Positions 14,168 to 28,537 of a DNA stretch of 29,470 nucleotides are shown one piece after another. How positions within the stretch are numbered: position 1 is the stretch's first letter; each line of letters opens with the position of its first letter. This DNA is from a virus. The notes under the pieces were generated by a model. The model searched no databases and was not told where the DNA came from. It was given only the letters and a program-made list of their open reading frames with translations. Made by a program: the position numbers and the translations under genes. The stretch spans positions 1 through 29,470 of the IMG/VR virus record IMGVR_UViG_3300044675_001527, one strand, 5' to 3'.

Positions 14168-14958
14168 CCACTGAAGCAACAACTGACCAACCCGCATCCA
14201 GCGGCCTATTGGACAATGTGCAAGTGACTGATGAAAGCACTCCATCAAACCCACAAGCCGTAGAGATTGAACACCGATCTGATACCACTGCGGCTACCAG
14301 TACAGCGCCTACAGGAACAGATGATCCCTTAGAGCGTCCTGACTTCTGGCCTGAGAACTTCTGGAAGAAAGACTCCAACGAGCCTGATCTAGAAGGCATT
14401 GCCAAGTCTTGGTCAGATCTGCGTAAGCAAATCAGCCAAGGCAAGCATAAAGCGCCAGCAGACGGTAATTACGACATGAAGCTCTTTGGCGACAATGCTG
14501 AAGGCAACCCAATGGCTAGTACTCTAACCAACTGGGCAAAGGAAAACGGCTTATCCCAAGCGGCATTTGACGACTTGGTAGGCAACCTGCAAACCCAAGC
14601 GCAAGAGATCATGGGCGCTGACATGGTAGACCCAGCGGAAGAGCTGAAAGCCCTTGGCCCTAATGGAAAAGCCATGGTAGACGGCATGGTGAACTGGGCT
14701 AGGGGACTGGTCAACAAGGGTGTTTGGTCACCAGATGACTTTGAAGAGTTCAAGATCATGGGCGGTACTGCTCGTGGAATCAGGGCTTTGATGAAGGTCA
14801 GAGAGTCTTATGAGGGCAGGATTCCAATTGAGTCTGCACCTTTGCCAGGCACTTCCAGCAAGGATGAGTTGTACCAAATGGTGCAAGATCCTAAGTACAA
14901 GACTGACCCTGCCTACAGACAAAAGGTTGAAAAGATGTTCCAAGCGACATTTAAGTAG
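14164..14958 (+). CDS. Scaffolding protein
   Basis: The product has 264 residues and begins at a TTG codon (14164) coupled to the previous gene, with GAGG six bases upstream. No alternative ATG in this frame gives a sensible N-terminus. The N-terminal half is acidic and disordered (rich in Thr, Ser, Asp, Glu), followed by DFWPENFWKKDSNEPDLEG and YDMKLFGDNAEGNPM. The C-terminal part is helical with a basic end (KVEKMFQATFK), as in scaffolds that nucleate capsid assembly through a short basic C-terminal helix. Its position between portal and capsid genes is diagnostic. An intrinsic terminator follows. Confidence 0.8.
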   Translation: MTTEATTDQPASSGLLDNVQVTDESTPSNPQAVEIEHRSDTTAATSTAPTGTDDPLERPDFWPENFWKKDSNEPDLEGIAKSWSDLRKQISQGKHKAPADGNYDMKLFGDNAEGNPMASTLTNWAKENGLSQAAFDDLVGNLQTQAQEIMGADMVDPAEELKALGPNGKAMVDGMVNWARGLVNKGVWSPDDFEEFKIMGGTARGIRALMKVRESYEGRIPIESAPLPGTSSKDELYQMVQDPKYKTDPAYRQKVEKMFQATFK

Positions 14959-14983
14959 AATCTCCAAGGCAAGCAGTTGCCCT

Positions 14984-15012
14984 TTGCCCCTACTTGCGTG
15001 GGGGCTTTTTTT
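14984..15012 (+). terminator. Intrinsic terminator after the scaffold gene
   Basis: GCCCC (14986-14990) and GGGGC (15001-15005) form a stem around a nine-base loop, followed by seven T (15006-15012). It separates the portal/scaffold transcript from the capsid unit. Confidence 0.88.
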
Positions 15013-15022
15013 CGTCTATACT
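14994..15022 (+). promoter_or_regulatory. Promoter that fires through the terminator toward the cloverleaf RNA
   Basis: TTGCGT (14994-14999), exactly 17 bases, then TATACT (15017-15022). The -35 box is inside the terminator loop. Transcription would start at about 15029, a few bases before the 70-nt cloverleaf at 15036. Confidence 0.5.
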
Positions 15023-15035
15023 CTGATCCGTCAAG

Positions 15036-15105
15036 CATCGCAGCAAGACACCCTAAAGCCCTTTGGCTCTAGCTTTCTAGCCTCGAAAGAGGTCACGCTG
15101 CGATG
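15036..15105 (+). ncRNA. Predicted 70-nt cloverleaf-shaped structured RNA (novel, unidentified)
   Basis: A perfect nine-base outer stem CATCGCAGC (15036-15044) and GCTGCGATG (15097-15105) encloses 52 bases. Three hairpins lie within it in a row: AGCC-CTTT-GGCT (about 15057-15068), CTAG-CTTT-CTAG (about 15069-15080) and CCTC-GAAA-GAGG (about 15081-15092) with a GNRA-type tetraloop. Hand-folding gives a four-way junction. It is not a canonical tRNA: the outer stem is nine bases, the loops are four bases, and no T-loop TTCRA sequence or CCA end is present. The promoter upstream would start transcription at about 15029. No known RNA family is recognised. Confidence 0.5.
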
Positions 15106-15400
15106 TGGAAAGCTGGAACCAGAGGGTTTTTGCTTTTCTGACTCGCAGGCAATGCGGTACGTCAGTGGTTGCCTGTTAAATAACCCTGTTACACGGCAAG
15201 CCAAAGCGGGGATGGTGGGCTAAGAATAGAGCCAGGTGGTAGGTCAGCAATGACTGCAAGTCTGTTCAGTGTGATGCGATGGCATGGCTCCGTAGGGCAT
15301 ACATCGAAGCACAGGCGAACTTTGGTTTTGACCACGGTAAGGCTGTGCTTTGCTCAAACATTCACCATAGGGCATTTATAGAGATTAGATTAAATAAGTG
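15106..15400. other. Gene-free stretch between cloverleaf and capsid promoter
   Basis: No convincing gene was found. One 23-codon frame from about 15152 lacks a ribosome site. The stretch holds a weak hairpin AACC-AGAG-GGTT followed by a T-rich tract (about 15118-15139), which could end the upstream RNA, an inverted repeat CAGGCAA/TTGCCTG (about 15147-15175) and an eight-base inverted repeat AAGCACAG (15307-15314) with CTGTGCTT (15343-15350) around a 28-base loop. Confidence 0.4.
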
Positions 15401-15431
15401 TTGACAGGTGTTAAAAAGTGATATATATAAT
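15401..15431 (+). promoter_or_regulatory. Strong sigma70-type promoter of the capsid gene
   Basis: TTGACA (15401-15406) is the perfect consensus, followed after 17 bases by TATATA (15424-15429) and an overlapping TATAAT (15426-15431). Transcription would start near 15438, giving a leader of about 136 bases. It is the best promoter match in the window and fits a major-capsid gene that needs high expression. Confidence 0.8.
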
Positions 15432-15437
15432 GTAAGC

Positions 15438-15573
15438 ATAGGCATATCTGGCAACAGACCCTTAACCGCAGTGGATGCTGTAGATTGGCTGGCTTAACCA
15501 GCAAGCATATGGCCCTGACTCTCAGGCTTACCGTGGCGAGAACCCTGATCAATTAACTTAATGAGGTATTCAA
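15438..15573 (+). other. Capsid mRNA leader with small hairpins
   Basis: The leader holds hairpins GCTGG-CTTAA-CCAGC (15488-15502) and CCTGA-CTC-TCAGG (15514-15526), and the ribosome site GAGGT before the ATG at 15574. No open reading frame of note is seen. Hairpins in this position may stabilise the mRNA or modulate translation. Confidence 0.45.
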
Positions 15574-16416
15574 ATGAGCGTTTCTCTATCCAACGCCTTT
15601 GTTACTCTGTTCGATGCGGAAGTCAAGCAAGCCTACCAAGGTAAGGCAATGCTGGTTCCAGCGGTTCGCCAGCGTCGAGGAGTCGAAGGTTCTACTGTCA
15701 AGTTCCCCAAGGTCGGTCGTGGTGTTGCCACTGTCCGTCTTCCCCAAACTGATGTCACACCTTTAAACGTAGCATTCAGCACCGTCACTTGTACGTTGGC
15801 TGACTTCAATGCTGCTGAGTACAGCGACATCTTTTCCCAAGCTAAAGTCAACTTTGACGAGCGCCAAGAATTGGTGCAAGTTGTTGCTGGCGCTATGGGT
15901 CGCCGTCAAGACCAAATGATTCTGGATGCCTTGACTGGCTCTAGCACCAGCTTGACTGTTGCTAACAGCATTGGTGGCTCTAACACCAACATGAACGTAG
16001 CAAAACTGCGTGAAGCCAAGCGTTTGATGGACAAAGGTAATGTGCCACCTGATGGTCGCAATATCCTTATCCACGCAAATGGTTTGTCCAACTTGCTGTC
16101 TGAAACCAGCGTTACCAGCTCCGACTTCAACAGTGTGAAAGCATTGGTGCAAGGCGACATCAACACATTCTTGGGATTCACATTCCATGTGTTGGGTGAC
16201 CGCTCTGAAGGTGGCTTGGCAATTGACGGTTCTTTGGATCGTACTTGCTTTGCATTCCACAAGGATGCAGTTGGCTACGCCGAAGGTCTTGCCATGCGTA
16301 CTGAGATCAACTACATCGCTGAGAAGACTTCTTGGTTGGTGAATGAGGTTTTCAGTGCTGGCGCTATCGCCATTGACGATGAAGGTATCGTCAAGATCAC
16401 CTGCCGTGAAACTTAA
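15574..16416 (+). CDS. Major capsid protein
   Basis: The protein has 280 residues, behind the strongest promoter and a GAGGT ribosome site. It begins MSVSLSNAFVTLFDAEVKQA, and has the mixed helix-strand layout of HK97-like coat proteins of the podovirus 'phage capsid' group: an N-arm, KVNFDERQELVQVVAGAMGR (long spine helix), RNILIHANGLSNLLSET and FLGFTFHVLGDRSEGGLAID (A-domain), ending with a beta-sheet segment. The position directly after the scaffold supports the call. The small size is typical of this group (about 270-340). The copy number is high, consistent with the isolated promoter. Confidence 0.88.
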   Translation: MSVSLSNAFVTLFDAEVKQAYQGKAMLVPAVRQRRGVEGSTVKFPKVGRGVATVRLPQTDVTPLNVAFSTVTCTLADFNAAEYSDIFSQAKVNFDERQELVQVVAGAMGRRQDQMILDALTGSSTSLTVANSIGGSNTNMNVAKLREAKRLMDKGNVPPDGRNILIHANGLSNLLSETSVTSSDFNSVKALVQGDINTFLGFTFHVLGDRSEGGLAIDGSLDRTCFAFHKDAVGYAEGLAMRTEINYIAEKTSWLVNEVFSAGAIAIDDEGIVKITCRET

Positions 16417-27832: not shown

Positions 27833-27891
27833 TGGGAAAAGCAGCATCACTTGCAAACATAGGCAGCATTGCTGATAGCTCGCTGGGCTAA
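27832..27891 (+). pseudogene. 19-codon remnant of a tail-gene start
   Basis: An ATG overlapping the fibre stop (TAATG) opens MGKAASLANIGSIADSSLG and stops at 27889-27891, two bases before the homing endonuclease start. Its sequence resembles the start of the next tail gene, MSRTAKLADLAAAYDSGGG, in length, charge and pattern. The simplest reading is the truncated 5' end of a tail gene whose body was replaced or displaced by the endonuclease insertion. A short translated coupler peptide is the alternative. Confidence 0.45.
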
Positions 27892-27892
27892 T

Positions 27893-28537
27893 ATGGACTT
27901 TGCACCCACCGCTCTTCTGGTAATGACGCACAACGTTACTGGCCTAAAGTATTTCTGCAAAACAACTCGGCTTGGGTTTTTGCACAAGTACAAGGGTAGC
28001 GGCGTGTACTGGAAGCGGCACATGAGGTTGCATGGTCGTGATGTGACTGTTGGTGTTCTTGGTGTTTATTTTGACAAAGACCGATGCATGTCTGCTGCGC
28101 TAAATTTCAGCAAAGAAAACGACATTGTGAAAGACTCTGGATGGGCAAACTGCATTCTTGAAAATGGTCTTGATGGCGCTGGCGCTGGAGAGGCAAACCA
28201 TCGGTATGGAAAGCCTCACCCAAATAAAGGTGGCACACGGCCTGAAATGATTGGTCGTCTGATTGGCCCATTGAACGGCATGTATGGCAAACCAAGTCCC
28301 CTACGAGGCGTACCAAAGCCGAAAGGCAAAGATAGTCCTTTGTATGGTAGGAAGCGTCCAGATGGCTGCGGAAAACCATCAAAGGCCGTTGTACGATTGG
28401 ATGATGGCGTGGTATTTGAGTCTGTATCTGATGCTGGTAGGGCTTGCAATGGCGCAACTTCTGGCATCTCAAAATGCTGCATGGGTAAGGCAAAATCTGC
28501 TCACGGTTTCCGTTGGGCTTATAAGGAGAATGTATGA
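27893..28537 (+). CDS. Freestanding homing endonuclease with NUMOD3 repeats
   Basis: The protein has 214 residues from ATG 27893. An in-frame TTG at 27869 lies inside the remnant frame. Residues 8-48 (ALLVMTHNVTGLKYFCKTTR, then YKGSGVYWKRHMRLHG) resemble the GIY-YIG-like, GSG-x-YW-x2-H phage endonucleases. Two or three NUMOD3 DNA-binding repeats follow: GKPHPNKGG (106-114), GMYGKPSPLRG (129-139) and KGKDSPLYGRKRP (144-156). The C-terminus (AVVRLDDGVVFESVSDAGRA, then HGFRWAYKEN) matches an IENR1/NUMOD-type helix-turn-helix. Such enzymes cut a related allele and spread by repair. It overlaps the next tail gene by ATGA. Confidence 0.82.
   Translation: MDFAPTALLVMTHNVTGLKYFCKTTRLGFLHKYKGSGVYWKRHMRLHGRDVTVGVLGVYFDKDRCMSAALNFSKENDIVKDSGWANCILENGLDGAGAGEANHRYGKPHPNKGGTRPEMIGRLIGPLNGMYGKPSPLRGVPKPKGKDSPLYGRKRPDGCGKPSKAVVRLDDGVVFESVSDAGRACNGATSGISKCCMGKAKSAHGFRWAYKENV

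What the first reader, a model, noticed from the sequence alone, without database searches (positions are those of the whole stretch)
15036..15105. Undescribed 70-nt four-way-junction RNA between scaffold and capsid genes
A perfect nine-base outer stem (CATCGCAGC/GCTGCGATG) encloses three hairpins, AGCC-CTTT-GGCT, CTAG-CTTT-CTAG and CCTC-GAAA-GAGG, placed almost end to end. A TTGCGT-17-TATACT promoter lies directly upstream and would start transcription about seven bases before the structure. It is cloverleaf-like but not a tRNA. Perfect long-range pairing with three nested hairpins, in a stretch with no open gene, is unlikely to be chance (inference). It could be a phage small RNA, a tRNA-like decoy, or a processing/packaging element.
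Basis: partly seen in the sequence, partly recalled or inferred. Interest (0 to 1): 0.75.

Follow-up and report, generated by a model that had tools for sequence, protein, structure and literature searches.

The report
Modular pseudoknot RNA element in phages
The stretch is real, but it is only the first third of a larger (about 350-base) structured RNA with its own promoter-like signal, which turns up beside many different genes in viruses of freshwater bacteria and sometimes sits next to a DNA-cutting enzyme gene; its function is unknown, and the public library of RNA families holds only a fragment of some relatives.

Summary
The 9-bp outer stem, third hairpin and promoter are real; the four-way junction is not. 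Folding 15029-15135 gives a 24-bp helix B (15055-15079/15106-15130) that replaces hairpins 1 and 2. Each of those has a pair broken in 12 of 16 relatives; B is paired in 16 of 16. Outer stem A (15036-15044/15097-15105) is kept by compensatory changes; A and B cross, a pseudoknot. This is the 5' domain of a ~350-nt RNA (about 15029-15375) between scaffold terminator and capsid promoter, in 14 of 72 measured capsid relatives. Among 105 distinct parsed domains, 101 hold the exact complement of their own loop heptamer (24 heptamers); a -10 box ends 6-7 nt upstream in 94 of 121. The 3' domain covaries too. In 27 elements tested, a word in it (window TAGGGCAT) recurs at its 3' edge, varying between elements but agreeing within them. 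At least 15 elements have an HNH gene just downstream; most do not. Best reading: RNA of a mobile phage element; a guide role is inference. Against: the whole region (15015-15580) folds little better than shuffled (z -1.4), and there are no expression data. Rfam RF02932 matches part of four relatives, not the window.

The parts
14986..15012 (+). intrinsic terminator of the upstream (scaffold-like) gene; its loop carries the -35 of the next promoter
   Evidence: (8-bp stem, T run)
14994..15022 (+). sigma70-like promoter TTGCGT-17-TATACT of the RNA
   Evidence: in the family 94 of 121 distinct elements score >=8 of 12, all 94 with the -10 box ending 6 or 7 nt before P0; controls 166 of 2420 shuffles, 26 of 663 upstream stretches
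15030..15049 (+). small hairpin P0 (GUC 15030-15032 / GAC 15047-15049) whose loop holds strand A5'
   Evidence: never varies in the 16; in other phages GUUG/CAAC types with changes on both sides
15055..15130 (+). helix B, 15055-15066/15119-15130 and 15068-15079/15106-15117 (24 bp), followed by a T run (terminator-like)
   Evidence: all 24 pairs kept in 16 of 16; 7 vary on one side, none on both
   Evidence: 4 of 5 pairs with changes on both sides; innermost pair broken in 5 of 16
15131..15366 (+). 3' domain (A-type core) with covarying helices, ending in CACC, which is predicted to pair with an internal GGUG
   Evidence: 11 of 35 predicted pairs with changes on both sides, 17 sequences
15293..15300 (+). 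internal copy of the repeated word TAGGGCAT, after GGCTCC
15368..15375 (+). terminal copy of TAGGGCAT just after the closing CACC
15376..15400 (+). 25 nt before the capsid promoter; here relatives such as L091 and L105 carry an HNH ORF (102-113 aa), absent in the window

Best explanation
The 70 nt are the core of the 5' domain of a ~350-nt non-coding RNA of a mobile, phage-borne element. SHOWN by comparison: a promoter-like signal directly upstream; a pseudoknot in which the loop of a 5' hairpin pairs through a variable 7-9-bp helix with the apical loop of a long hairpin ending in a U-run; a separate covarying 3' domain; presence or absence at one site in related phages and occurrence beside other genes in other phages; different pairings of 5' and 3' domains; an HNH gene directly 3' of the RNA in a minority of copies. 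INFERRED: the RNA is transcribed; the 5' domain folds in cis and compacts the RNA; the element moves; the 3' domain displays a 5-9-nt word identical to the DNA at the element's own 3' edge, so the RNA could pair with that DNA and lead an HNH nuclease (own or from another copy) or another enzyme to it for spread or maintenance. The window copy has lost, or never had, the HNH gene.
For: RNA. Stem A: 101 of 105 distinct 5' domains hold an exact 7/7 complement of their own heptamer by an automatic rule (which presupposes a heptamer starting GT or AT), 24 heptamers; heptamers of other elements match 11 of 2418 times. Mobility: 53 short and 14 long intergenic regions of 72 measured, 5 misread; isolate MEP301 has 184 nt; different 3' cores at the same site in close relatives; A core with a B/C-type 5' domain in L131/L132; 52 upstream and 47 downstream neighbour clusters among 137 and 136 loci. 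HNH: 9 contigs by protein search, L101 and five more elements by motif; Pfam HNH E 5e-12. Repeated word: longest shared run 7.1 nt within an element against 3.5 between elements, 27 elements in 17 classes; no complement of it in the element (own 4.8, others 4.9 nt, 19 elements).
Against: Most elements have no HNH motif within 1.5 kb (10 of 156 by one regular expression, which misses some), so HNH cannot be the general mobility enzyme. No target-site duplication or exact junction was found; sequence beside the insert differs between filled and empty sites. The neighbour clusters rest on mechanically chosen ORFs, some probably spurious (52 of 273 on the opposite strand), so they overstate diversity, and different neighbours in different phages do not prove movement. 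The word is short, was tested only where the core has GGCTCC...CACC, is 4 nt in one class (L248), and often overlaps a ribosome-binding-like stretch before the next ORF. Eleven of the 27 are close relatives of the window. The whole region 15015-15580 folds at z -1.4, 8 of 100 shuffles as low. No expression data.
Confidence: 0.42

Rival explanations
1. Phage-serving ornate RNA of the GOLLD/ROOL kind: the RNA acts for the phage during lysis; stem A is an intermolecular kissing contact that builds homo-oligomers, and its variability keeps the RNAs of co-infecting phages from mixing.
For: Phage-borne, structured, two-part with a linker that takes inserts (ORFs in L253, L226, L243, a tRNA-like piece in L187, all by eye); GOLLD linkers can hold tRNAs and intermolecular contacts covary (passages of PMC12286853). 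Helix A nearly always exact Watson-Crick.
Against: No Rfam match to GOLLD or ROOL. The 5-nt P0-B linker of the window should let A form within one molecule (inference). HNH association and scattered sites fit a mobile element better.
Confidence: 0.22
2. Attenuator or leader: RNA polymerase starts at about 15029, helix B with its U-run ends most transcripts, and the A-B pseudoknot and 3' domain control read-through into the next gene.
For: Promoter-like signal at the start of the structure; a T-run follows B in the 5'-domain types I looked at (in the set it was required by the pattern); several elements lie just before an ORF.
Against: In the window the capsid gene has its own TTGACA promoter and its own conserved leader after the element, and relatives without the element keep both. 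Downstream genes are of many kinds. A highly variable helix is not expected of a ligand-sensing leader.
Confidence: 0.17
3. Small-RNA specificity or immunity system: the terminated ~100-nt 5' domain is the product, and heptamer alleles define groups that recognise each other in trans, as loop alleles do in plasmid incompatibility RNAs (comparison recalled).
For: 24 heptamers, few imperfect helices; very different 5' domains on nearly identical C-type cores.
Against: Each heptamer finds its complement in the same RNA; I looked for no separate target; the conserved 3' domain would be superfluous.
Confidence: 0.12
4. Chance fold without function.
For: Whole-region fold close to shuffled; no expression data.
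Against: Compensatory changes and promoter position.
Confidence: 0.02

Closest known systems
Rfam RF02932 Betaproteobacteria-1 RNA
   Same: Matches about the first 118 nt of the 3' domain in four relatives (L240, L248, L257, L260), starting 16-23 nt after the shared 5' domain.
   Different: No match in the window or in 14 A-type or A-like loci; a covariance model of the A-type core does not find those four; in these relatives the Rfam match covers neither the 5' domain nor the 3' end.
HEARO / OMEGA RNAs (IscB, IsrB)
   Same: Structured RNA directly upstream of an HNH-type ORF; the HNH segment of two proteins is nearest, in NCBIfam, to that of IscB.
   Different: No HEARO match in Rfam; the ORF is about 100-150 aa, with HNH the only domain found above cut-off; most copies have no such ORF.
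GOLLD and ROOL phage RNAs
   Same: Phage-borne, structured, loop contacts, linker with inserts (PMC12286853 passages).
   Different: Shorter; no Rfam match; highly variable exact helix; HNH association.
IS110 bridge RNA
   Same: A stretch inside the RNA matches the element's own DNA (PMC11208160 passages).
   Different: The window copy lies between a scaffold-like gene and the capsid gene, not beside a recombinase; only one short word at the 3' edge; no defined junction.

Membership tests
tRNA / tRNA-like | tRNA cloverleaf | tested here: not met
   ARAGORN 0 genes in the window; no Rfam tRNA match in the window
RF02932 Betaproteobacteria-1 | Rfam covariance model match | tested here: not met
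   window: none at gathering nor at E up to 10 on 14930-15600; four relatives do match
GOLLD / ROOL | Rfam covariance model match | tested here: not met
   window; relatives:
GOLLD / ROOL | RNA-only homo-oligomer | not testable with these tools
   needs mass photometry or cryo-EM
HEARO / OMEGA | Rfam HEARO match | tested here: not met
   window; relatives:
HEARO / OMEGA | adjacent IscB/IsrB protein with RuvC | tested here: not met
   window: scaffold-like gene and capsid gene on either side; relatives with an ORF: HNH only in the one protein given to Pfam, IscB model 25-37 bits against a cut-off of 175 for two proteins
HEARO / OMEGA | RNA directs DNA nicking or cleavage | not testable with these tools
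   needs purified protein and RNA
IS110 bridge RNA | encoded DEDD recombinase | tested here: inconclusive
   none among the 10 window proteins given to PHROGs; other window genes and the relatives' genes were not searched for it
IS110 bridge RNA | internal loop matching donor DNA | tested here: inconclusive
   internal word equals the 3'-edge word, 27 elements, 7.1 against 3.5 nt; pairing itself not shown
group I/II introns and ribozymes held in Rfam | Rfam covariance model match | tested here: not met
   window; relatives:

The most novel reading that the evidence does not exclude
A new class of RNA-directed mobile element of phages, in which a short word displayed by a structured RNA and identical to the element's own edge directs a minimal HNH nuclease, or a borrowed enzyme, to that edge; a highly variable, nearly always exact Watson-Crick pseudoknot at the 5' end gives each RNA an allele-specific identity.
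Probability: 0.22. Interest if true: 0.92.

Novelty: new variant of a known kind. Interest (0 to 1): 0.7.

Why it matters
It turns a 70-nt curiosity into a large, modular phage RNA family of which the RNA-family library shows only a fragment in some members. The variable but exact pseudoknot and the co-varying direct repeat are unusual, concrete signals that can be tested with one RNA and one small protein, and they bear on how phages carry and spread structured RNAs.

Tried and rejected
Four-way junction: rejected on energy and conservation. tRNA, GOLLD, ROOL, HEARO, group I/II and other Rfam families: no match for the window. Sub-threshold matches (for instance 'Betaproteobacteria toxic sRNA' and mir-3160, the former also in L220) fall on the upstream terminator or on helix B and look like hairpin resemblance. 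RF02932 as the family of the window core: covariance model R1, which is built from 17 cores including the window, finds only the window among 16 sources and not the four RF02932 carriers, although some motifs (GGCTCC, CACC) look alike by eye. Repeated word as an alternative RNA pairing: no complementary partner. Repeated word in B/C cores: there it is near-palindromic and may also pair, so it was not counted. BLAST against named phage records with the window region, pieces of four relatives and one composite: one family member, MW202484.1; one search gave seven further matches at E about 1, not followed. The 5'-domain pattern was in 1 of 399 sampled genomes of the Comamonadaceae MAG's family, the seed itself; that exact pattern covers only one 5'-domain type. 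My first two parses of the heptamer took wrong registers (93 of 105 and 68 of 105); the rule gives 101 of 105. By eye, three of its four misses (L147, L207, L230) are register errors and L258 is 6 of 7; L194 (truncated) and L224 (not parsed) were left out. Alignment A2 was drawn only from elements whose complement was found and its helix B columns were partly fixed by the search pattern, so its counts lean towards the structure; in it helix A is 88.3% paired and one P0 pair is unpaired in 16 of 38. A1 was chosen by 3'-core motif and loose end patterns that fix a few bases next to or at the start of stem A, not its complement; in it one stem A pair is G-U in 2 of 16, and one of five shuffle measures (further pair types) is not above chance. 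Dropped before counts: 29 duplicate loci of 76, elements too close to a contig end.

Full report
Context. The window is a phage record with terminase, head-tail adaptor, head-assembly, capsid and tail genes among the 10 proteins searched; its capsid is closest among named phages to Methylophilales phage MEP301 (76%). The intergenic region 14959-15573 lies between the scaffold-like gene and the capsid gene.

The observation. The outer stem and the third hairpin are exact, and 15036-15105 folds better than all of 200 shuffles (z -4.7). The region 15015-15580 as a whole folds only at z -1.4, 8 of 100 shuffles as low. On 16 window-type relatives (alignment A1) stem A is 100% paired with 4 of 9 pairs changed on both sides; B is 100% paired (7 of 24 pairs with one-sided changes, none on both sides); h has 4 of 5 pairs changed on both sides and its innermost pair broken in 5 of 16; slid controls fall to 36-53% paired; four of five measures exceed the shuffles, 'further pair types' does not. 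Hairpins 1 and 2 each have a pair broken in 12 of 16. A and B cross, so the fold is a pseudoknot.

Extent. Of 80 capsid relatives, 72 gave an intergenic length: 53 of 193-253 nt, 14 of 438-627 nt, and 5 misread by my ORF rule (9-21 nt); 8 had no upstream gene. The long ones carry some 340-380 nt more, between the scaffold gene's terminator and the capsid promoter. MEP301 has 184 nt there. Motif scans brought the elements to 76 loci including the window, 47 distinct, with three core types (A = window, B, C). C-type elements also occur without this capsid in the contig, behind their own TTGACA...TATGAT-like promoter.

Family. Of 105 distinct parsed 5' domains, 101 hold the exact complement of their loop heptamer by rule; there are 24 heptamers, and heptamers of other elements match in 11 of 2418 trials. 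In alignment A2 (39 rows, 38 distinct, drawn from those with a complement) 15 of 30 pairs change on both sides and 0 of 500 shuffles reach the observed covariation score; helix A is 88.3% paired there. A -35/-10 pair scoring at least 8 of 12 precedes 94 of 121 elements, in all 94 with the -10 box ending 6 or 7 nt before the first hairpin, against 166 of 2420 shuffles and 26 of 663 upstream stretches. The window's promoter scores 8.

3' domain. On 17 A-type cores including the window, 11 of 35 predicted pairs change on both sides; the model built from them matches the window by construction. Rfam has no match for the window, but RF02932 covers the start of the 3' domain in four relatives. In A-like and RF02932-like cores the word after GGCTCC recurs after the closing CACC: 27 distinct cases (the window's two words equal those of L100), mean longest shared run 7.1 nt, against 3.5 in 270 pairs taken from different elements; 16 of 17 classes share at least 5 nt, one (L248) only 4. 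Where an element had two CACC sites the better one was taken, in the control too. The word has no complement in the element (19 elements).

Mobility signs. Mechanically chosen neighbour ORFs fall into 52 upstream clusters (137 loci) and 47 downstream clusters (136 loci) among 156 distinct elements; the largest are the scaffold (32) and capsid (26) genes. HNH ORFs follow the RNA in at least 15 elements: L089, L091, L093, L094, L096, L099, L102, L104, L105 (same contigs), L101, and L147, L160, L162, L195, L219. L131/L132 join an A core to a B/C-type 5' domain. After the window's terminal word there are 25 nt to the capsid promoter, where L091 and L105 carry the HNH gene.

Interpretation. That this is a conserved, pseudoknotted RNA and one member of a modular family is well supported; that it is transcribed is likely from the promoter but not shown. 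That it belongs to a mobile element is likely. That it is a guide is an inference from one co-varying repeat. Homo-oligomerisation, attenuation and trans-acting specificity remain open.

Literature. I saw passages of PMC12286853 (GOLLD/ROOL), PMC9755519 (HEARO) and PMC11208160 (bridge RNA), and otherwise search listings only. Searches for 'Betaproteobacteria-1 RNA' and for homing endonuclease with HEARO and phage found no paper; in the listings for GOLLD with ROOL and phage and for structured phage RNA with hypervariable pseudoknot I saw no description of this element. The library holds open-licence papers only. The comparison with plasmid incompatibility RNAs is recalled.

Noticed in passing
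window 15431-15573: The capsid gene's 5' leader looks like a conserved structured RNA itself: 10 of 26 predicted pairs change on both sides in 13 relatives with and without the element; no Rfam match in the window.
   Followed up: partly
window 14986-15022: Terminator and promoter overlap: the -35 hexamer sits in the loop of the upstream terminator and the T-run lies in the spacer; in some relatives (L090, L094, L101) the loop reads TTGACA. A loose pattern of this kind precedes 32 of 122 elements.
   Followed up: partly
window 15324-15345 and 15523-15544: A 22-nt inverted repeat (82% complementary, 177 nt apart) links the element's 3' domain with the capsid leader.
   Followed up: no
L187, downstream of the 5' domain: A tRNA-like stretch with a GGTTCGATTCC T-loop-like motif lies after the 5' domain, before the 3' domain; ARAGORN does not call it.
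   Followed up: partly
L253, L226, L243, downstream of the 5' domain: Open reading frames, by eye, directly follow the 5' domain; in L253 and L226 a 3'-domain-like stretch comes after them.
   Followed up: no
window 27869-28534: A gene with weak HNH/homing-endonuclease PHROG matches, far from the element.
   Followed up: no
L082 2500-2870 (MW202484.1): A named circular podovirus genome carries a divergent element, with a 'hypothetical protein' annotated across it.
   Followed up: yes
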